This document shows, in pieces, positions 1 through 7,943 of a DNA stretch of 8,946 nucleotides (position 1 is its first letter; every line of letters starts with the position of its first letter). The DNA comes from Elusimicrobiota bacterium (GTDB taxonomy: Bacteria > CG03 > SLGR01 > PWQF01). The notes under the pieces are model-generated. The model saw only the letters and a program-made list of their open reading frames with translations. It searched no databases and was not told the DNA's origin. Both the position numbers and the translations under genes were made by a program. The stretch covers positions 1 through 8,946 of the forward strand of contig PWOI01000164.1 in the NCBI GenBank assembly GCA_003557485.1. Reading direction: 5' to 3'.

Positions 1-676
1 CTATTCTAGCCTGTGTTTCTACTACAAGACGGTCGCCATGATCTATAGGAAGCTGCTGATTCATTTCGCTGTCAGAACCGGTTATTAAATTTCCCTCCCA
101 GAACCTTTGATTACTGTCTTGGTGACCTGTTTCTGTGACCCAGGACCCATCATCCAGAACTATCCATTCGTTCGCGCGGGGAGAGCGTGGTAAAAAATGC
201 GAATCATCCCAGTTTCTTCGCCATAGATAAAGCTGGGCATTAAAGCTCACTGTATAATTACGCGATTTTGCAATAGATGTTGCATAAGCACCGAATTTCC
301 CGTGAAAAGTCCATTCATCCGAAGTTTCAATAAACTGATCTCCGTCAAGAGGAGGTGAAACAAAAATCCCCAAACTACTGTGTTCCCCGATACCTACCGG
401 GCTGAACATTGTCTGGCGGGGCTCTCCGAGAAGACTGGTATGAAAACCACGGGCATTGCCCTCATTAATTACCGTTGAATAGTCATCTCTGGCCCGACCG
501 GTATTAGGTTTGGGACCTTCCTCAAACGGAAACTCGGCGGTGGCATCAAACACAGGGTATATTCTATTCTGAGATACAGCTTTTACAGCACAAAGTAAAA
601 TTATACAGATCGTTACAACTCCTGCGTGGCAAAAAGCAGTTAACAATCTATTTAATGCTGTTTTATTGAATTTCAT
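1..676 (-). CDS. Unrecognised exported protein, N-terminal part (C-terminus outside window)
   Basis: The reading frame is open from an ATG at 676 to the left edge, giving 225 codons with no stop, so the C-terminus is missing. The first ~35 residues form a long signal peptide or N-terminal membrane anchor: a basic start (MKFNK, then NR), a hydrophobic core around VVTICIILLCAV, and an AVS/QN-like possible cleavage site. The rest is polar and rich in aromatics, Gly, Asp and Ser, with alternating patterns such as YTVSFNAQLYLW (residues 141-152) and GDRLVVE (214-220). This suggests a beta-rich extracytoplasmic domain. I do not recognise the family, and no sorting signal is visible in this part. 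It is the last gene seen in the operon and starts 4 nt after the stop of the TPR gene. The Shine-Dalgarno match is weak, so translation may depend on coupling. Open frame and signal sequence are seen directly; the secreted, beta-rich nature is inferred. Confidence 0.8.
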   Translation of the reverse strand, partial: MKFNKTALNRLLTAFCHAGVVTICIILLCAVKAVSQNRIYPVFDATAEFPFEEGPKPNTGRARDDYSTVINEGNARGFHTSLLGEPRQTMFSPVGIGEHSSLGIFVSPPLDGDQFIETSDEWTFHGKFGAYATSIAKSRNYTVSFNAQLYLWRRNWDDSHFLPRSPRANEWIVLDDGSWVTETGHQDSNQRFWEGNLITGSDSEMNQQLPIDHGDRLVVETQARI

Positions 677-680
677 TCTT

Positions 681-1577
681 TTATTGTTTACCCAAACTCC
701 GTTTTCTTATTTCAATAAGATTTCTAAGGTTCTTCTCACCGGGATCCGCTTTTTTGTACGCCTTACTGTAGGCTTCAGCCGCTTTTTCAAAATCTCCGAG
801 TCGGGCATACGCATCACCTAAAAGTACATATAGTATTTCCTTATCCGGACTTATACGTATTCCGTCTTCCAGGATGTCCGCCGCCTTGTCATATTCGGAG
901 GATTGAATATATTTAATACTAAGCTGATGATGCAAATATGCTGTATGTTCTCCTGCTTGCCGGTTTTTTTCAATACCCTTCTTTAAAATCCTCTCAGCCT
1001 CTGACATATTTCCACGAGTTCTGTATACAGTTCCCGCATACATATAATTGGCAAGAGAATCCGGAGCATTATTGATTCCTTCTAATGCTAGCTGCAGGGC
1101 TTTTTCTTCATTACCCAAACTACTGTATGCCACGGCTAAATCGTGATATGCCGGACCATAATCGGGCTTGATTTCTAATGCTCTATTAAGCGCTATTATC
1201 ATATCTTCATATTCTTCAGCGTAAAAATGTACGTATTCCATTAGAATATAGGCATAAGGGTTATCCGGATTATTGAGAATAAGGTTTTCAGCAATATTTC
1301 TCATGGTTTTGGCGCTTTCGGGGCTGGCAGAAATACGCCGATGAGATTTGTTAGCTTCATCCATCCTGTTAAGTGAATAATATGCAATCTGAATAAAATA
1401 ATGAGGAGAAGGATTCTCCGGTTCTCTTTCCGCCCAACTTTCGCCATCTCTTATAATTTGCTCCCAATTTCCCTGGAGAAGATGATACGACAGTTGATCT
1501 GTTTCGGCTCTGGAAACCCCAGATACTGTTAATATCAAAATAGAAAATATAATGGTTGTTATTACTTTCTGTTTCAT
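681..1577 (-). CDS. Exported TPR-repeat protein
   Basis: This 298-residue protein has an N-terminal signal peptide: a basic MKQK, a hydrophobic core to about residue 20, and a likely signal peptidase I site after SRA near residue 24. About five tetratricopeptide repeats follow, at roughly 106-139, 142-172, 175-206, 213-244 and 247-278. They show the usual small/large pattern, for example AYHDLAVAYSSLGNEEKAL and YVLLGDAYARLGDFEKAAEAY. Degenerate repeat material occupies 35-90. TPR arrays bind other proteins, so a periplasmic or surface scaffold role is likely; no catalytic motif is visible. The ATG at 1577 overlaps the upstream TGA as ATGA, and a G-rich AGGGGG lies about 11 nt before it, both supporting this start. 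Its partner may be the membrane protein encoded just upstream, which carries its own TPR tail. The TPR assignment is firm; the molecular role is unknown. Confidence 0.9.
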   Translation of the reverse strand: MKQKVITTIIFSILILTVSGVSRAETDQLSYHLLQGNWEQIIRDGESWAEREPENPSPHYFIQIAYYSLNRMDEANKSHRRISASPESAKTMRNIAENLILNNPDNPYAYILMEYVHFYAEEYEDMIIALNRALEIKPDYGPAYHDLAVAYSSLGNEEKALQLALEGINNAPDSLANYMYAGTVYRTRGNMSEAERILKKGIEKNRQAGEHTAYLHHQLSIKYIQSSEYDKAADILEDGIRISPDKEILYVLLGDAYARLGDFEKAAEAYSKAYKKADPGEKNLRNLIEIRKRSLGKQ

Positions 1578-4500
1578 CTCGTCACTATCCCCCTTGCTTC
1601 GGGTAGAAGTATAGAAACATATCTTTCATCATATCTCATAGCCCTGTTAAAAGCTCCTTCCGCCTGTTCCGCCCTATTAAGCCTTAAATATACATGTCCA
1701 AGGATATACCAGGCATCGGCAGATTCTGGATAGCGCTCAAGAGCTTTATGCATATACTTTTTAGCCTCAAGCGGATTATTTTTATTTTCAAGAAGAATTC
1801 TTCCTAAATGCAGATAAGGATATAAAAAGTCCGGCTGGCGACTGATCGCCTCCCTAAACAGAACATCAGCCTGTTCTATCCTTCCGGTCCGGATGTAGAT
1901 ATCTCCAAGGTTATTGTAGGCAAATATGTAATCAGGATTATCTTTAATTATCTCTTTAAGAATTCCTTCGGCTTTTTCTATATTTTCTTTAAGTAGGTAT
2001 GCCTGACTAAGATTTATTCTTGTGGCCTCATCCTTAGGATTTATATCCAGTGACTTATGAAGCATATCCATACCAGTATCCACATCCCCCAGCATGAGGT
2101 AGCAGTAACCGGAAAGATTATACGCTTCTTGCAGTTTCTGGCCACTTGAAATTGATATTTTTAATTCTGAAAGAGCCAGTGTGAAGTCATTCCTTTTTAT
2201 AAATGCCTCCGCCAGCTCTAAATTACCTTCAAAATCTATTATATAATTTGCAGGGCTTTCCCTGTTTTCATTTAAAAATTGATGGGTGCGATCCCCGGTG
2301 TCCAGGTACATATTCCGTGCCGCTGAAAATTCAAGAAGTGGACGATTATCAGAATTTACTCCCCTTACTGACCCGGTAATCCTTTTTATTTTTTCGGGAC
2401 CTATAACAAATCTGGAAAGCAGGTCGTATGGGGTTTCGATACCCAATAGCTGAGAGTAGTTATTCTCAGCATTTTCAAACATTTCTTTTATTTTATTAAA
2501 ATCAATTTTATTCACATCTTCAGACGCTATAATAAGAGAATCACTGTGAGAAACGTTCCAAACAAACACATTTTCAAATACTTCATCAATAGTTTTAAGT
2601 ACTAGTGCATAATCTTTCGGATGTATTGCATATCTCTGCATCCATGCACCGAAAACACCTCCAGAATTAAGCCTATATTTTACTGTCTCAAAAAATTCCT
2701 TAGTGAACAGCTGAGCGCTGCCTGCCATCCAGGGGTTTGAAGGAACGGAGGATATTACATCATAAGTTTGTCTTGTTGCATTCAAATAGCTGCGTGCATC
2801 ATTAATTATTATATTTATTCTTTCATCATTTAACGGGTCACCACTCCACTGGTTAAAAAACCTGCTGGCTTCTATCATGGCGGGCTCTATTTCAACACAG
2901 TTTATAGTTTCAATAGTTTCCCATTTTGTCATAGAACCAAGAGTTATACCGCTCCCGAGGCCTATAACAAGACTTTTTCTAGGTGATCCATGCATCATTA
3001 CGGGTAAATCCGAAAGTAAAACATGGGTCTCCATTTCTTCCGCAACATTGTTGGACGCATCAACTTTGCCGTCTATGCGTAAAGTTCTTATCCCCGAATC
3101 TGCAGACTCCTCCACACTTACTGTAAAATGAGTGCCTTCTTTATAATAAAGAATCTCGCTTTCCCATTTCCTGAATTCCCATATATCAGAAGAAGTAATA
3201 TTTTTTGCCTTTATATTTTCTCTATAAGTAAGAGCGTAATTATATATTCCTGAAGCAAGAACCTGTTTATTCCACTCAGGCAATGCAAAAACATAAGGAA
3301 CCACAAAGAAAATCACTGCCGCAGTAACTATGCTTCTTTGAATTTTATTCTTTTGCAGCCCTATATTAAGCAATACCAAAGCCAAAACAATATTTATGAA
3401 CGAAATGGTAATTACGGTTCTTTGAATTCCTATTAGAGGTATCAAAGCGAATCCCGTCGCCAAAGTTCCTATAACAGCACCTATTGTATCGGCAGAGTAG
3501 ATTCTTCCAACAGATATTCCGGTTCCCGGAATACTGTTTTTTTTATGATTCTTGTAGTTATTCCTATATATACTGCAGGCAAGGGGCAAAGTTATTCCAA
3601 ACAATGTAGTGGGAATTATCATTACTGCAAAAACCAATAAGAATTGTGCACCCTGGAATAAGGTGAAGTTATCTCCAACAACATTGAAGAGATTTAAAAA
3701 AACAATAGGGAGAAAACCGAACACAGGGATAAGCAGAAGAACTGAAAGCCCTATAGCAGCTTGAGTATATCCATATAAAGTTATTTGTTTTTCAATCTTT
3801 AAAATCTTACTTTTTTTCTCATAGGCTGCATAAATAGCTCCTCCTATTGCAAGCCCCATAAGAAAAGCACAAAGCATTGTTGCGAATGCATATACAGTTG
3901 ATCCAAGTACCATGGAAAGAATCCTTGTCCATACTACTTCATATGAGAGAGCTGTAAGGCCTGAAAGTCCGGCAACTAAAAGTATTATATTAACTCTTCC
4001 AGGTTTTTCCTTGTCAACAGTTATTTTCGGTTCTTTTCCAGAAACAAAATCAAACTCATTTGTTCGAGCCTGAATAAAGACCGTAATTGCTATAACAAAA
4101 TTCACTGTTGCCGTAAAATAGAGAGTACCCTTAACTCCAATAAACATTATTAAAAGATATCCTGCCAGAAATGAACCCAATGCCGCACCTAACGTATTTA
4201 CAGAATAAAGCAGCCCTACATTGAAACCCAGTTTTCCCCCAAAACTATGGTATTCATTGAAAAATTTACTCATAACAGGAAACATTCCTCCTATAAGAAA
4301 TGTCGGAATGAAAACTGCAATAAATCCTATAATAAAAATCAACATTACACTTAGGCTTGTATTTTCAATAATGCCTATTCTTGAATAGAGCTCGTTTATT
4401 CCTGAAAATATCAAGAAAGAAAAAAGAATATAAATACCTGTTCCCGCTTCCAACATACTATAAATATAAAGAGGAGACTGTTTTTTAGAATCTACCAGAG

Positions 4501-4678
4501 CCCCAAAAAACCATGATCCCAGAGCCATACCGCCCATAAATCCCGCAAGAACAGTTGTAACTGCATAAGTTGCATTTCCAAATATATTACCTAGCAACCG
4601 AACACAGACAACTTGGTATACTAGTCCGGCAAAACCTGACATAAAAAATAAAACAATAAGTTTTTTCTTAATATTCAT
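1574..4678 (-). CDS. Fused MFS-like membrane protein / spermidine-synthase-like domain / TPR tail
   Basis: This 1034-residue protein has three parts. Residues 1-465 form a polytopic membrane domain with about 12-13 hydrophobic segments in two similar halves; each half opens with a related motif (GLVYQVVCVRLL at 18-29, ALSYEVVWTRIL at 243-254). Residues ~500-790 resemble spermine/spermidine synthases, with a glycine-rich nucleotide-binding loop VIGLGSG (571-577), an acidic CVEIEP strand end (594-599), NDARSYL (626-632) and SNPWMAG plus LFTKEFF downstream. Residues ~815-1020 are four to five TPR repeats. This layout matches proteins annotated as fused MFS/spermidine synthase. The position where true synthases carry an acidic DSTDP-type motif reads SVPSNP, so aminopropyl transfer is doubtful. 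A SAM-type ligand-binding role or another transferase activity remains possible. The start ATG overlaps the previous stop as TGATG, with no strong Shine-Dalgarno, implying translational coupling. The substrate is unknown. The gene is visibly more A+T-rich than the HEAT genes before it. Confidence 0.88.
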   Translation of the reverse strand: MNIKKKLIVLFFMSGFAGLVYQVVCVRLLGNIFGNATYAVTTVLAGFMGGMALGSWFFGALVDSKKQSPLYIYSMLEAGTGIYILFSFLIFSGINELYSRIGIIENTSLSVMLIFIIGFIAVFIPTFLIGGMFPVMSKFFNEYHSFGGKLGFNVGLLYSVNTLGAALGSFLAGYLLIMFIGVKGTLYFTATVNFVIAITVFIQARTNEFDFVSGKEPKITVDKEKPGRVNIILLVAGLSGLTALSYEVVWTRILSMVLGSTVYAFATMLCAFLMGLAIGGAIYAAYEKKSKILKIEKQITLYGYTQAAIGLSVLLLIPVFGFLPIVFLNLFNVVGDNFTLFQGAQFLLVFAVMIIPTTLFGITLPLACSIYRNNYKNHKKNSIPGTGISVGRIYSADTIGAVIGTLATGFALIPLIGIQRTVITISFINIVLALVLLNIGLQKNKIQRSIVTAAVIFFVVPYVFALPEWNKQVLASGIYNYALTYRENIKAKNITSSDIWEFRKWESEILYYKEGTHFTVSVEESADSGIRTLRIDGKVDASNNVAEEMETHVLLSDLPVMMHGSPRKSLVIGLGSGITLGSMTKWETIETINCVEIEPAMIEASRFFNQWSGDPLNDERINIIINDARSYLNATRQTYDVISSVPSNPWMAGSAQLFTKEFFETVKYRLNSGGVFGAWMQRYAIHPKDYALVLKTIDEVFENVFVWNVSHSDSLIIASEDVNKIDFNKIKEMFENAENNYSQLLGIETPYDLLSRFVIGPEKIKRITGSVRGVNSDNRPLLEFSAARNMYLDTGDRTHQFLNENRESPANYIIDFEGNLELAEAFIKRNDFTLALSELKISISSGQKLQEAYNLSGYCYLMLGDVDTGMDMLHKSLDINPKDEATRINLSQAYLLKENIEKAEGILKEIIKDNPDYIFAYNNLGDIYIRTGRIEQADVLFREAISRQPDFLYPYLHLGRILLENKNNPLEAKKYMHKALERYPESADAWYILGHVYLRLNRAEQAEGAFNRAMRYDERYVSILLPEARGIVTR

Positions 4679-5349
4679 CAGAAAAACAGAAACCTGCGCC
4701 GCCTCTGCGGGGCAATCTCATTAATTTTATCAAGGGCAGACCCGGCAGATTTTTTAACCCGTTCGTTTCTGTCCCGCCTGCTTATACTATTTAAAGCGCT
4801 TCTCGCTTTCTCTCTTGCGTTTTCTTCCCTTAAAGCAATATTACCGAGGGCAGCGGCTGCCGCTTCTCTCACCGGCCATTCGGGATCGTTCTCGGCGATC
4901 CGGATAATACTGTCAAGCTCATCTTCTCCCCCGGTTTCACCAAGGGATTTTAATGCCGAAATCCGGACATTTTCATCTTCGCTCTCTATTGCTGACAATA
5001 AGCGGCTTTTTACTTCCCGTCCCTCAAACCTGCTGAGCGCCTCGGCGGCCATTGCCCTTGCGGCAGGGAGTTCATCACGGTTTAAAATATTTGTGAGGGG
5101 ATCCACCGCCGCTTCATCACCTATCTGGCCAAGCGCTACTATCGCATTTATTCTAACCCCGGGAACCTCGTCTCCAAGCGCTTTTATGAGAGCAGGGACA
5201 GCTTCCTTTATTTTTTCTGTTCCCAGCCTGTAGGCTTCGGCGCTTCTGACGGCAGGATTTTCATCTCTTAAAAGAGGGAACTCAGCACCGTAACATACCG
5301 CTGCTGAAGTTATTAATAAAAAGACGGAAATAATAATTGCTTTTCTCAC
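4678..5349 (-). CDS. Exported HEAT-repeat protein (second of two tandem paralogues)
   Basis: This 223-residue protein begins with a signal peptide (MRK, hydrophobic core IIISVFLLITSAAV, cleavage near CYG/AE around residue 21). The rest is HEAT/PBS-lyase-like repeats of about 30 residues: NPAVRSAEAYRLG (31-43), PGVRINAIVALGQIG (63-77), ARAMAAEALSRF (97-108), ENVRISALKSLGETG (126-140), WPVREAAAAALGNI (158-171) and ERVKKSAGSALDKI (196-209). Such arrays form alpha-solenoid binding surfaces; no enzymatic motif is seen. The C-terminus is basic then aromatic (RRRRFLFF). The start is GTG, overlapping the upstream stop as GTGA, with GGGAG placed 6 nt before it, so this start is well supported. It aligns along most of its length with the upstream HEAT protein, indicating local duplication. 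The envelope location is inferred from the signal peptide, and the binding partner is unknown. Confidence 0.9.
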   Translation of the reverse strand: MRKAIIISVFLLITSAAVCYGAEFPLLRDENPAVRSAEAYRLGTEKIKEAVPALIKALGDEVPGVRINAIVALGQIGDEAAVDPLTNILNRDELPAARAMAAEALSRFEGREVKSRLLSAIESEDENVRISALKSLGETGGEDELDSIIRIAENDPEWPVREAAAAALGNIALREENAREKARSALNSISRRDRNERVKKSAGSALDKINEIAPQRRRRFLFF

Positions 5350-6023
5350 CTTTGTCTCCCTCTGCCTCTTTCCTGCCTTACTTCCCTGAGTTTTTCCGAA
5401 TACTCTCTGGCGGCTTCTGCAGTTTCAGCGCCGCCCTGTCTGGCTAAATTTTCAATGATTTCTTCCAGCACTTCTAATTCATCATCTTCCCGTCCGAACT
5501 CGGGGTGATATATTATAGACTCTATTGAAGCCCTTTTTATTCTTTCTCTTTTAGTTTCCCGCACCTTTTCCATAAGCCTTTCTTTTGTTGACGGTGTACC
5601 TATTCTTCCAAGAGACCTTACTGCTGTTTCTGCAACCAGCTCATCTTCATCTTCGGCAGCAGCAGAAAGAGCCTCAACAACTTCTTCACTGCTGAAGCTG
5701 CCGAGAGCCTGCGCCGTCATAATCCTGACTGAACGGGAAGAATCGTTCTTTAAAACCTCCAGCATGGGCCTTACAGCTCCTTCGCTTCTAAACCGGCCCA
5801 GAGCCACCGCTGCGCTGGCCCTTACACCGGATGACGGGTCTTGCAGCATCTGAATAATAAGGGGGACTGCTCCGGTAACGAATTCATTGCCGAGCCGCCT
5901 AATCTCGTTCATTCTTACAGCCGGCGAAGTGCTCTCAAGGAGAGAGTATTCTGCCATAAGAGACGAAACGGCTGACGCCGTGTATACTGCCGATATAATA
6001 AAAATTTTAATAAGTACTTTCAT
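5346..6023 (-). CDS. Exported HEAT-repeat protein (first of two tandem paralogues)
   Basis: The open frame extends to an ATG at 6038, but I prefer the internal ATG at 6023 (MKVLIKIF). It gives a standard signal peptide ending near SSLMA/EYS and has GAGA about 6 nt upstream, whereas the ATG at 6038 has no Shine-Dalgarno match. The mature part carries HEAT repeats. In 230-residue numbering from 6038 these are SPAVRMNEIRRLG (38-50), SGVRASAAVALGRF (70-83), RSVRIMTAQALGSF (102-115) and LVAETAVRSLGRIG (134-147). A charged helical tail rich in Glu and Arg follows (160-230). A solenoid protein-binding role in the envelope is inferred; no catalytic residues are visible. It is followed with a GTGA overlap by its paralogue, and it lies about 90 bp after the operon's first gene, with a stem-loop between them. 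The HEAT assignment is firm and the function unknown. Confidence 0.88.
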   Translation of the reverse strand: MKVLIKIFIISAVYTASAVSSLMAEYSLLESTSPAVRMNEIRRLGNEFVTGAVPLIIQMLQDPSSGVRASAAVALGRFRSEGAVRPMLEVLKNDSSRSVRIMTAQALGSFSSEEVVEALSAAAEDEDELVAETAVRSLGRIGTPSTKERLMEKVRETKRERIKRASIESIIYHPEFGREDDELEVLEEIIENLARQGGAETAEAAREYSEKLREVRQERGRGRQR

Positions 6024-6059
6024 TTTCTTTCTCAACATGCAGAAAAACCATATATTTTT

Positions 6060-6095
6060 TCTGATGTATTTCTCTGAATCTTGAGAAATATCAGA
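6060..6095 (-). other. Intercistronic stem-loop between first and second operon genes
   Basis: ATTTCTC (6068-6074) pairs with GAGAAAT (6083-6089) around an 8-nt loop. CTGAT (6061-6065) pairs with ATCAG (6090-6094), leaving a 2-nt bulge at 6066-6067; T6060 and A6095 can add one more pair. On the transcribed minus strand the stem is followed by an A-run, not a T-run, so it is not a rho-independent terminator. An mRNA-processing or stability element is the most likely role, and that is inference. Confidence 0.5.
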
Positions 6096-6113
6096 TAGGC
6101 CGTATGGAAGTCT

Positions 6114-6590
6114 TTATTCCAGAAGAATGGGAACCCTGAATCTGGGTTCGTCTTTAGTTGGAAGCTTCATACATAGCAGAAGCATAAATGCGCCTAAAAT
6201 AGGCGCCGTAAAGACAATATTTGCTGCTCCCATTGGATGGCTGACGCTTTCGGTTAACATAACCATAAGTTCTTCGCGGCCGGGCATAAAAGAAGTCATC
6301 AGCCGGGGCAGATTAAGGATGAAGTTTGGAAGGAGGCTTTCAGTAGTTTCGGGAGGCGAGACCCTGCGGGTAACTCCGAAGGGTGAAATCTCTGAATAAA
6401 CTCTTGTGAAAACAGTAGAGCGGAAAGTAAAATCAGATTCAAGGGGGCGGTTCTGGGAATCCCTGGCGTCTATCATATGACGGCTTGAAAGATCCGCAAA
6501 ACCTCTGTGCAGAGTGAAAGCTTCGGCTGCTGCGACGCTGCCTATAAGCAGAGTAAAAGCAAGAGCCAGTATTATATTAATTTTTCTCAT
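6114..6590 (-). CDS. Unrecognised small exported protein with C-terminal membrane segment; first gene after the riboswitch
   Basis: This 158-residue protein has a clear signal peptide (MRKINIILALAFTLLIGS, cleavage near AAAEA around residues 21-24). A polar, moderately Arg-rich central region follows (25-115). A hydrophobic segment at about 120-142 (ANIVFTAPILGAFMLLLCMK) could span the inner membrane, followed by a short charged tail. I do not recognise a family, and there is no enzymatic or repeat motif. It starts only 20 nt after the last base of a rho-independent terminator, so its expression should depend directly on the upstream riboswitch. No good Shine-Dalgarno sequence is visible (the upstream stretch reads AAGTAAAGACAATAT). 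A bitopic envelope protein acting with the downstream HEAT/TPR proteins is plausible from context only. The open frame is real by signal peptide, codon structure and operon position; the function is unknown. Confidence 0.75.
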   Translation of the reverse strand: MRKINIILALAFTLLIGSVAAAEAFTLHRGFADLSSRHMIDARDSQNRPLESDFTFRSTVFTRVYSEISPFGVTRRVSPPETTESLLPNFILNLPRLMTSFMPGREELMVMLTESVSHPMGAANIVFTAPILGAFMLLLCMKLPTKDEPRFRVPILLE

Positions 6591-6609: not shown

Positions 6610-6647
6610 AAAAAACAGCCGGTTTCTCTGATAAGAATAACCGGCTG
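6610..6647 (-). terminator. Rho-independent terminator of the riboswitch expression platform
   Basis: On the minus strand, CAGCCGGTT (6647-6639) and AACCGGCTG (6624-6616) form a perfect 9-bp GC-rich stem with a 14-nt loop, followed at once by six T residues (6615-6610). This is a textbook intrinsic terminator. It lies 19 nt after the aptamer and 20 nt before the ATG of the first operon gene, which argues for conditional attenuation. The loop contains CTTATCAG (6635-6628), the exact complement of CTGATAAG (6746-6739) in the aptamer. Confidence 0.9.
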
Positions 6648-6665
6648 CTTGATAGAAATCGAATT

Positions 6666-6750
6666 TCTGCCGGCGGCCCAGCCCTCCGGCATCGCCGGAG
6701 CTGTGACTTTGCGTGCCGCCCGTTACCGGACGGTAGCCCTTATCAGCAGA
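6666..6750 (-). ncRNA. Cyclic di-GMP-I (GEMM-I) type riboswitch aptamer
   Basis: Read on the minus strand, the fold matches the GEMM-I class by eye. P1 is TCTGCTG (6750-6744) with CGGCAGA (6672-6666), seven pairs including one G-U. The AAGGGC core strand (6741-6736) resembles the conserved AGGGC of Vc2. A hairpin CCGTCCG/CGGGCGG (6733-6727, 6722-6716) is capped by a GTAA GNRA tetraloop, followed by the hallmark ACGCAAAG (6714-6707). A second arm is CAG then CTCCGGC/GCCGGAG with a GAT loop (6703-6684), a GG bulge and CTG (6681-6679), followed by GGCCGCC. The class binds c-di-GMP; a G at the position equivalent to Vc2 G20 favours c-di-GMP over cGAMP. The stretch between core and tetraloop hairpin (CTA) is slightly shorter than in Vc2, so a variant class cannot be excluded. 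A terminator follows directly. The assignment rests on sequence and pairing only. Confidence 0.85.
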
Positions 6751-6782
6751 CTATTTTTACTACTTCAATCCTTCCACTTCAA

Positions 6783-6811
6783 TTCATAACACCGATTGTC
6801 TAATTTGTCAA
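6783..6811 (-). promoter_or_regulatory. Predicted sigma70-type promoter for the riboswitch-controlled operon
   Basis: On the minus strand a perfect -35 box TTGACA (6811-6806) is separated by exactly 17 bp from TATGAA (6788-6783), a 4/6 match to the -10 consensus. Transcription should begin near 6776, about 26 nt before the aptamer, giving a leader of roughly 186 nt. The -35 box overlaps the stop codon of the transposase gene (TGA at 6810-6808), so the promoter abuts the end of the insertion sequence. Confidence 0.65.
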
Positions 6812-7845
6812 CCCCATGTCCTGGCAGGGTACATAGGTAACACTTTGGTTTTCTTCCCAAGCTCATTTTCAATATACTCCATCGGTGTCAGATAATCAAG
6901 AGTCTGATGGGGTCTGTTGTAATTGTACTCTACCAGCCACTGTGTTAAATTTCTATTAAAACTGTCGCAATTAAGTTCAAAATTACCATCATTGAGCCAC
7001 TCATATTCAAGGGTCTGGTTAAACCTTTCTATTTCAGGGTTATCCTTTGGCGTTTTAACCCTGGAAAAATATCTGGTAATTCCCAAAGATTTAGCCGCCC
7101 TGTCGAAATAGTGCGAAAATTCCGATCCATTATCTGTCAGCAGGTTTTCTATAGGCTTGCCTATCACGTACTGGAGCCTGTAGAGAAAATCCTTTGCCGC
7201 TATTGAGCTTTTGTTCTTATACATCCTTGCATATCCCATCTTACTGGCATGGTCTACAGATGTCAGGATATATCTCTTGGAGCTATCCCAGTACATTACT
7301 ATCGTGTCCAGCTGCAGCAGAAACCATAATCTGTTTTCTTTTTTCAGCTGTGTTATCCGTTTCTTTTGTTTCTCTCTTGCCCGGGCCCGTTTCCTTGCTG
7401 TTTTTTCTGCTTTTATCTGATCCGGGTAAAGGCTGTGTTTTCGTATTACCCGTTCTATTTTCCACGTAGATATAGTTTCAGAATATTTCTTTTCATAGAG
7501 CACTTTTAACTTTTTCTTTCCGTAGTGCATATGCTTTCTTCTGAGCTCTTTTATCCTTATCTCCTGCTGGAGGCTTACCTGCCATTTACGCTTATTAATG
7601 GGCTCTTTTGACTGGTCCAGAAGCTCTTCCAGGTGTTCGTTGCTCTCTTTAAAGCGGTTATGCCATTTATAGAAGGTCTTGCGGGATATACCGAAATGAC
7701 GGCTTGTTTTGGCCGCATTTTCTTTTCCCTGGGTCTGGTAGAATATCATCCACTCCAGTCTCAGCTGGGCATTGGCCGGAAGTTTCCATTTACAGGCTTT
7801 TTCCCGCCATTTGTCATATTTTGTTTTTACAGAACTTTCTTTCAT
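6808..7845 (-). CDS. IS481-like DDE transposase
   Basis: This single-ORF transposase of 345 residues has a normal length for the IS481 group. An N-terminal helix-turn-helix lies at about 42-65 (AAKTSRHFGISRKTFYKW), followed by a basic linker (75-170). The rve integrase core carries D180 in LLQLDTIV, D238 in LTDNGSEF and E273 in PEIERFNQT; the D238-E273 spacing gives a proper DD35E triad, so the enzyme looks catalytically intact. The C-terminal YNYNRPHQTLDYLTPMEY is typical of the family. The ATG at 7845 has AGGAG placed 6 nt upstream, a strong start. An extended -10 promoter lies in the adjacent inverted repeat. Its coding end reaches to or just beyond the left terminal repeat, and its stop overlaps the -35 box of the next transcription unit. 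I see no frameshift or internal stop. Family membership is judged by motifs and single-ORF structure. Confidence 0.93.
   Translation of the reverse strand: MKESSVKTKYDKWREKACKWKLPANAQLRLEWMIFYQTQGKENAAKTSRHFGISRKTFYKWHNRFKESNEHLEELLDQSKEPINKRKWQVSLQQEIRIKELRRKHMHYGKKKLKVLYEKKYSETISTWKIERVIRKHSLYPDQIKAEKTARKRARAREKQKKRITQLKKENRLWFLLQLDTIVMYWDSSKRYILTSVDHASKMGYARMYKNKSSIAAKDFLYRLQYVIGKPIENLLTDNGSEFSHYFDRAAKSLGITRYFSRVKTPKDNPEIERFNQTLEYEWLNDGNFELNCDSFNRNLTQWLVEYNYNRPHQTLDYLTPMEYIENELGKKTKVLPMYPARTWG
6831..6848 (+). repeat. Left terminal inverted repeat core of the IS
   Basis: ACATAGGTAACACTTTGG pairs with the right-hand copy at 7887-7905, differing by one substitution (A/G) and a one-base T-run difference. 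It lies inside the last codons of the transposase gene, encoding the KVLPMY region. Confidence 0.8.
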
Positions 7846-7880
7846 GGGCAGCTCCTCTGGTATCTTTTATCTCTTGTGTG

Positions 7881-7889
7881 ATTATACCA
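7881..7889 (-). promoter_or_regulatory. Extended -10 promoter of the transposase
   Basis: The minus strand reads TGGTATAAT, a perfect TATAAT (7886-7881) preceded by the TGn extended -10 motif. No good -35 hexamer is visible at 16-18 bp spacing, which is compatible with an extended -10 promoter. It lies 35 bp before the transposase ATG and within or next to the inverted repeat, a common arrangement in insertion sequences. Confidence 0.6.
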
Positions 7890-7905
7890 AAAGTGTTACC
7901 CATGT
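7887..7905 (-). repeat. Right terminal inverted repeat core of the IS
   Basis: On the minus strand this reads ACATGGGTAACACTTTTGG and matches the left repeat at 6831-6848. It lies upstream of the transposase start and runs directly into the transposase -10 box. Confidence 0.8.
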
Positions 7906-7943
7906 TTCTCAGCCTAGTCAGCCCTGAACCCGTTAACAGGCCC

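What the first reader, a model, noticed from the sequence alone, without database searches (positions are those of the whole stretch)
6610..6811. c-di-GMP-type riboswitch, terminator and promoter in front of an uncharacterised envelope operon
Seen directly: a GEMM-I-like aptamer with P1, a GNRA-capped hairpin, ACGCAAAG and the third arm, followed by a perfect 9-bp GC stem with T6 that ends 20 nt before the first ATG; a TTGACA-17-TATGAA promoter lies upstream. Known: c-di-GMP-I riboswitches control motility, surface and envelope genes. Inference: c-di-GMP controls read-through into six genes, five of them coding for exported proteins of unknown role. This places an undescribed HEAT/TPR/synthase-like system under second-messenger control.
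Basis: partly seen in the sequence, partly recalled or inferred. Interest (0 to 1): 0.85.

Follow-up and report, generated by a model that had tools for sequence, protein, structure and literature searches.

The report
c-di-GMP OFF-switch before envelope operon
An RNA sensor for the bacterial signal c-di-GMP really does sit in front of a six-gene cell-envelope operon and is predicted to shut it off when the signal is high; it is a related copy of the sensor that controls a flagellum-like motor operon in the same genome, and related bacteria carry the operon without it.

Summary
Rfam c-di-GMP-I (RF01051) matches window 6748-6669 (-) over all 87 positions at 40.5 bits (gathering cutoff 35). A host promoter (TTGACA-17-TATGAA) lies upstream, and a 9-bp intrinsic terminator with T6 ends 19 nt before the first ATG.

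New here: the terminator's 5' arm and loop (6643-6628) are complementary to the aptamer's 5' strand (6746-6731). Folding along the nascent chain gives this antiterminator first and the terminator last. The same pairing occurs in five orthologous leaders, with some compensatory changes. Predicted logic is OFF: c-di-GMP holds the aptamer, so the terminator forms.

The control is not general to the operon. In two relatives the homologous ORF1-HEAT operon has the same type of promoter and no aptamer. The window copy groups (100/98) with leaders that precede a PorV-like gene, followed in most by a FliF/FliG-like TPR fusion, then MotA and MotB where the contig extends. No FlhA was found in 16 genomes of the phylum. 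The likeliest reading is duplication of that leader onto the envelope operon (support 82/91, not decisive). An IS481-type element sits 6 nt upstream of the -35 box without breaking the promoter.

Verdict: a real new member of a known riboswitch class; apparent regulon expansion.

The parts
6783..6811 (-). promoter TTGACA (6811-6806) - 17 nt - TATGAA (6788-6783), with TGT before the -10 box
   Evidence: sequence; same element in 5 orthologous leaders and a similar one before 2 homologous operons; not listed by the automatic scan
6669..6748 (-). c-di-GMP-I (GEMM-I) aptamer
   Evidence: RF01051, 40.5 bits, full model
6744..6750 (-). P1 5' strand UCUGCUG (pairs with 6672-6666)
   Evidence: sequence, fold
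6666..6672 (-). P1 3' strand CGGCAGA
   Evidence: sequence, fold
6731..6746 (-). antiterminator 5' strand CUGAUAAGGGCUACCG, inside the aptamer
   Evidence: 14 of 16 pairs with 6643-6628
6628..6643 (-). antiterminator 3' strand CGGUUAUUCUUAUCAG (end of terminator 5' arm plus loop)
6610..6647 (-). intrinsic terminator: 9-bp stem (6647-6639 / 6624-6616), 14-nt loop, T6 (6615-6610)
   Evidence: sequence, fold
6114..6590 (-). ORF1, 158 aa, signal peptide and C-terminal hydrophobic segment (by inspection), first gene controlled
   Evidence: homologs in 3 genomes of the order; no Pfam or NCBIfam match
5346..6038 (-). exported HEAT-repeat protein a
   Evidence: Pfam HEAT_2 1.7e-27
4678..5349 (-). exported HEAT-repeat protein b
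   Evidence: Pfam HEAT_2 1.9e-33
1574..4678 (-). polytopic MFS / spermidine-synthase-like / TPR fusion, 1034 aa
   Evidence: NF037959 150.5 bits, Spermine_synth 7.7e-24, TPR
681..1577 (-). exported TPR protein
   Evidence: TPR_19 5.3e-17
2..676 (-). exported protein of unknown family, cut by the contig end
6808..7845 (-). IS481-type transposase; its IS (about 6817-7913) is inserted directly upstream of the promoter and is not part of the switch
   Evidence: IS481 HMM 2.6e-54, under the curated cutoff; ends mapped against relatives

Best explanation
This is a c-di-GMP-I riboswitch that works as a transcriptional OFF-switch. RNA polymerase starts at the host promoter 6811-6783 and makes the aptamer. 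Without c-di-GMP, the aptamer's 5' strand (6746-6731) pairs with the loop and end of the 5' arm of the future terminator (6643-6628), while the aptamer's 3' strand can pair with the rest of that arm; this antiterminator lets transcription continue into the six-gene envelope operon. With c-di-GMP, the aptamer is held, the terminator arm is free, the terminator folds and transcription stops 19 nt before ORF1. The leader is a paralog of the switch in front of the PorV-like / FliF-FliG-like / MotAB operon of the same genome, and probably came to this operon by duplication. Shown by computation: aptamer membership, terminator, mutually exclusive pairings, conservation in five orthologous leaders, absence of the leader in two homologous operons. 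Inferred: ligand identity, direction of control, duplication, envelope role.
For: RF01051 above cutoff. The positions that my knowledge of the Vc2 structure assigns to ligand contact (G20, A47, C92) are G, A and C here. Antiterminator complementarity: five orthologous leaders have duplex energies reached by 0-1 of 300 shuffles, while most other leaders of the phylum (L010, L013, L021, L028, L017, L015) show nothing above chance. Eleven central positions (0 to 10) pair in 5 or 6 of the 6 leaders, with several pair types such as GC, GU and AU at one position; just outside, one position changes from UA to AU. In all six leaders the ensemble goes to an antiterminator probability of about 1 once the loop is made and to the terminator when its 3' arm is complete. 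Diguanylate cyclase (GGDEF) domains present. Homologous operons lack the aptamer. The window aptamer falls in a 100/98 clade with PorV-linked leaders and next to the genome's own PorV leader when promoter and terminator are added (82/91).
Against: In the window copy itself the antiterminator has two internal mismatches (C-A, U-U), its duplex energy is reached by 17 of 300 shuffles, and it has the lowest RF01051 score of the 23 hits in the phylum, so it could be a decaying copy. Thermodynamic folding ignores kinetics, pausing, the aptamer's tertiary contacts and the ligand. Six leaders are few for covariation, and much of the aptamer 5' strand is fixed by the aptamer itself. Support for duplication is under the starred level.
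Confidence: 0.7

Rival explanations
1. The leader is an ON-switch: c-di-GMP prevents the terminator from forming.
For: In the same genome the leader at C100 (before a response-regulator gene) and its ortholog in G001 look like this: the terminator's 5' arm is the aptamer's own 3' strand, so ligand binding and termination exclude each other. ON and OFF cyclic-dinucleotide switches with homologous aptamers are known (PMC9262584).
Against: In the window the aptamer and the terminator do not overlap (6672-6666 against 6647-6616) and both form in the minimum-energy fold; what competes with the aptamer is the antiterminator.
Confidence: 0.12
2. The window copy is a duplicate that binds poorly or no longer switches; the operon is transcribed at a fixed partial read-through set by the terminator.
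For: Lowest RF01051 score of 23 hits in the phylum; longest branch in the leader tree (0.4); antiterminator mismatches; homologous operons work without a leader.
Against: Score above the gathering cutoff, ligand-contact positions intact, helices and terminator well formed, and the alternative pairing still forms in the ensemble.
Confidence: 0.12
3. The aptamer prefers cGAMP or another cyclic dinucleotide.
For: GEMM-I variants that sense c-AMP-GMP exist and differ at a pocket nucleotide (PMC9481103).
Against: The pocket position that is A in cGAMP variants (from memory, position 20) is G here; GGDEF domains are present. Hybrid promiscuous GGDEF enzymes were not tested for.
Confidence: 0.06

Closest known systems
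Cd1 c-di-GMP-I riboswitch (Clostridioides difficile flagellar operon; PMC9262584)
   Same: c-di-GMP-I aptamer; transcriptional OFF logic; aptamer and terminator can coexist and compete with an antiterminator that needs loss of the binding fold
   Different: In Cd1 the antiterminator is described as pairing the aptamer-stabilising strand A with the switching strand T; here the conserved long pairing is between the aptamer's 5' strand and the terminator's loop and 5' arm, with the 3' strand as an additional partner. Different bacteria and target genes.
Leader L002 (own genome C84) and orthologs L019, L026, L027, L029 before PorV-like genes
   Same: Promoter element, GUAA-capped P2, P3 AGCUCCGG-type helix, terminator and antiterminator layout
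   Different: The target operon; shorter leader in the window; two mismatches in the window's antiterminator
NCBIfam NF037959 fused MFS/spermidine synthase
   Same: The large window protein scores 150.5 against a cutoff of 40
   Different: Carries a C-terminal TPR region and sits with HEAT and TPR exported proteins; activity unknown

Membership tests
c-di-GMP-I riboswitch (RF01051) | Covariance-model score above the curated cutoff over the whole model | tested here: met
   40.5 against 35 bits, positions 1-87
c-di-GMP-I riboswitch (RF01051) | P2 with GNRA tetraloop and conserved ACGCAAA joining segment | tested here: met
   GUAA loop, ACGCAAAG
c-di-GMP-I riboswitch (RF01051) | Tetraloop receptor with CUAA / UAUG in P3 (present in many but, from memory, not all members, so not treated as defining) | tested here: not met
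   P3 is a continuous CUCCGGC/GCCGGAG helix with a GUAA loop on P2, as in the related leaders
c-di-GMP-I riboswitch (RF01051) | Binds c-di-GMP at high affinity | not testable with these tools
   needs in-line probing or ITC
Transcriptional OFF riboswitch | Intrinsic terminator between aptamer and gene | tested here: met
   9-bp stem and T6
Transcriptional OFF riboswitch | Antiterminator exclusive with both aptamer and terminator, conserved in relatives | tested here: met
   weaker in the window copy than in its orthologs
Transcriptional OFF riboswitch | Ligand raises termination | not testable with these tools
   needs in vitro transcription
cGAMP (GEMM-Ib) variant | A in place of G at pocket position 20 | tested here: not met
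   G at that alignment position; identity of the position from memory
IS481 element | Transposase above the NCBIfam cutoff | tested here: not met
   184.7 against 224 bits, best family by far; called IS481-type only

The most novel reading that the evidence does not exclude
A whole riboswitch cassette (aptamer, antiterminator, terminator) was copied from the leader of a flagellum-less FliF/FliG-MotAB motor operon into the gap between promoter and first gene of an unrelated envelope operon, so that one second messenger switches both off together in a phylum without flagella.
Probability: 0.45. Interest if true: 0.6.

Novelty: new member of a known kind. Interest (0 to 1): 0.42.

Why it matters
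How a riboswitch comes to control a new operon is rarely visible. Here an aptamer-less state (G002, G004), an aptamer-bearing state and a likely donor leader can all be seen. The leader family also gives a concrete, testable OFF mechanism and ties an uncharacterised envelope operon to the same signal as a FliF/FliG/MotAB-like motor in a phylum where no FlhA was found.

Tried and rejected
1) IS-derived promoter: rejected, IS ends mapped against copies in relatives lie outside the promoter and the promoter recurs without an IS. 2) Conserved riboswitch control of the operon: rejected, two homologous operons have no aptamer; the third, in G003, is cut by a contig end before the promoter. 3) Automatic promoter and terminator scan: listed neither element, the terminator for its 14-nt loop and the promoter for its TATGAA box. 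6) No close relative of the full MFS/synthase/TPR protein among the listed matches in the phylum; they cover single domains only. 7) Literature searches found no paper on this gene set or on FliG/MotAB genes of this kind in flagellum-less bacteria; only open-access papers were searched.

Full report
Observation. The window lies in a 2.07-Mb draft genome of 212 contigs, 86.6% complete. Rfam RF01051 matches 6748-6669 on the minus strand at 40.5 bits, E 2.6e-5, over the whole model. The leader folds better than every one of 200 shuffles (z -4.19). P1, the GUAA-capped P2, ACGCAAAG, P3 and the terminator (9-bp stem, 14-nt loop, T6) are all there. The promoter TTGACA-17-TATGAA is at 6811-6783; the automatic scan listed neither it nor the terminator.

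Insertion sequence. The gene upstream codes for an IS481-type transposase whose stop codon overlaps the -35 box. Copies in G004 (78% DNA identity) and G006 show that similarity runs from about 7913 to about 6817. The IS therefore ends about 6 nt from the -35 box, and the promoter is host DNA. The same promoter element occurs in the orthologous leaders.

Relatives. GEMM-I matches occur in 13 of 16 genomes of the phylum, 23 in all; the window hit scores lowest. In a tree the window aptamer lies in a 100/98 clade with L002 (own genome), L019, L026, L027 and L029. With promoter and terminator added, it pairs with the own-genome copy at 82/91, which is suggestive only. ORF1 has homologs in G002, G003 and G004 only, among 98 genomes searched. 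In G002 and G004 ORF1 is followed by a HEAT gene and preceded by TTGACA-17-TATCTA or TTGACA-17-TAGTAA a short way before the start, with no room for an aptamer and no c-di-GMP-I match even at a loose threshold. G003 is cut before the promoter.

Mechanism. The terminator arm plus loop CGGUUAUUCUUAUCAG (6643-6628) pairs with the aptamer 5' strand CUGAUAAGGGCUACCG (6746-6731) at 14 of 16 positions. In the five orthologous leaders the match is stronger: 0-1 of 300 shuffles are as good, against 17 of 300 for the window. Most leaders of other types show no excess; L023, L024 and L001 show a weak one. Column by column, positions 1 to 7 and 10 of the pairing are kept in all six, some with several pair types. 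Ensemble folding of growing transcripts gives antiterminator probability 0.94-1.0 in the window around completion of the loop, and terminator 1.0 once the 3' arm is made; the other five behave alike. In the intermediate fold the aptamer 3' strand GCCGGC also pairs with the terminator arm GCCGGU. Ligand binding should hold the aptamer and so favour the terminator. This resembles the Cd1 OFF-switch (PMC9262584), with a different strand doing most of the antiterminator pairing.

Regulon. The related leader in the own genome precedes a PorV/UPF0164-like gene with TPR, then a protein with a signal peptide (by eye), a weak FliF C-terminal match below its cutoff, FliG middle and C-terminal domains and TPR; then a long coiled-coil protein, MotA and MotB. 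The PorV-like and FliF/FliG-like pair follows the leader in G002, G003, G005, G009, G012 and G014, and MotA and MotB follow where the contig reaches that far. FliG_C is found in 12 of 16 genomes and FlhA in none; G004, which has the leader (L027), has no FliG_C match. Several genomes are incomplete, and absence of flagella is inferred from FlhA alone. The third leader of the genome, before a response-regulator gene, has a terminator that uses the aptamer's own 3' strand and is predicted to be ON, as is its ortholog in G001.

Target operon. ORF1 (no family), two exported HEAT proteins, an MFS/spermidine-synthase-like/TPR fusion, an exported TPR protein and a truncated exported protein follow with overlaps or short gaps; the longest gap is 75 nt, between ORF1 and HEAT a. 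The function is not known. An envelope role is inferred from signal peptides and membrane segments read by eye.

Verdict. The riboswitch is real and belongs to a known class. Its use here looks acquired. The OFF direction is a prediction with good comparative support in the leader family and weaker support in the window copy itself.

Noticed in passing
L034:8919-18350 (own genome C84) and L084-L089: Operon of PorV-like/TPR protein, FliF/FliG-like TPR fusion with signal peptide, 1300-aa coiled-coil protein, MotA and MotB behind a c-di-GMP-I leader, in a phylum where no FlhA was found in 16 genomes; possibly a rotary motor without a flagellum.
   Followed up: partly
L010, L011, L013, L014, L028 (just downstream of the aptamer); probably L012 and L021: A second near-copy of the aptamer's 3' strand (AGCCGGGCTACCGAA) follows the aptamer, and in L010, L013, L014 and L028 it forms the terminator's 5' arm: one 5' half with two possible 3' halves.
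   Followed up: partly
L001:1501-1588 and L015:1501-1587: c-di-GMP-I leader before a response-regulator gene whose terminator 5' arm is the aptamer's 3' strand, predicted ON-switch, opposite to the window.
   Followed up: partly
L033:1-6669 and L031:1-8265: In relatives the third gene of the ORF1-HEAT operon is a giant protein (over 2200 aa) with weak Ig-like domain matches instead of the synthase/TPR genes.
   Followed up: no
window 6039-6113: Hairpin (CUGAUAUUUCUC/GAGAAAUACAUCAG) between ORF1 and HEAT gene a, without a T run on the coding strand; possible mRNA processing or stability element.
   Followed up: no
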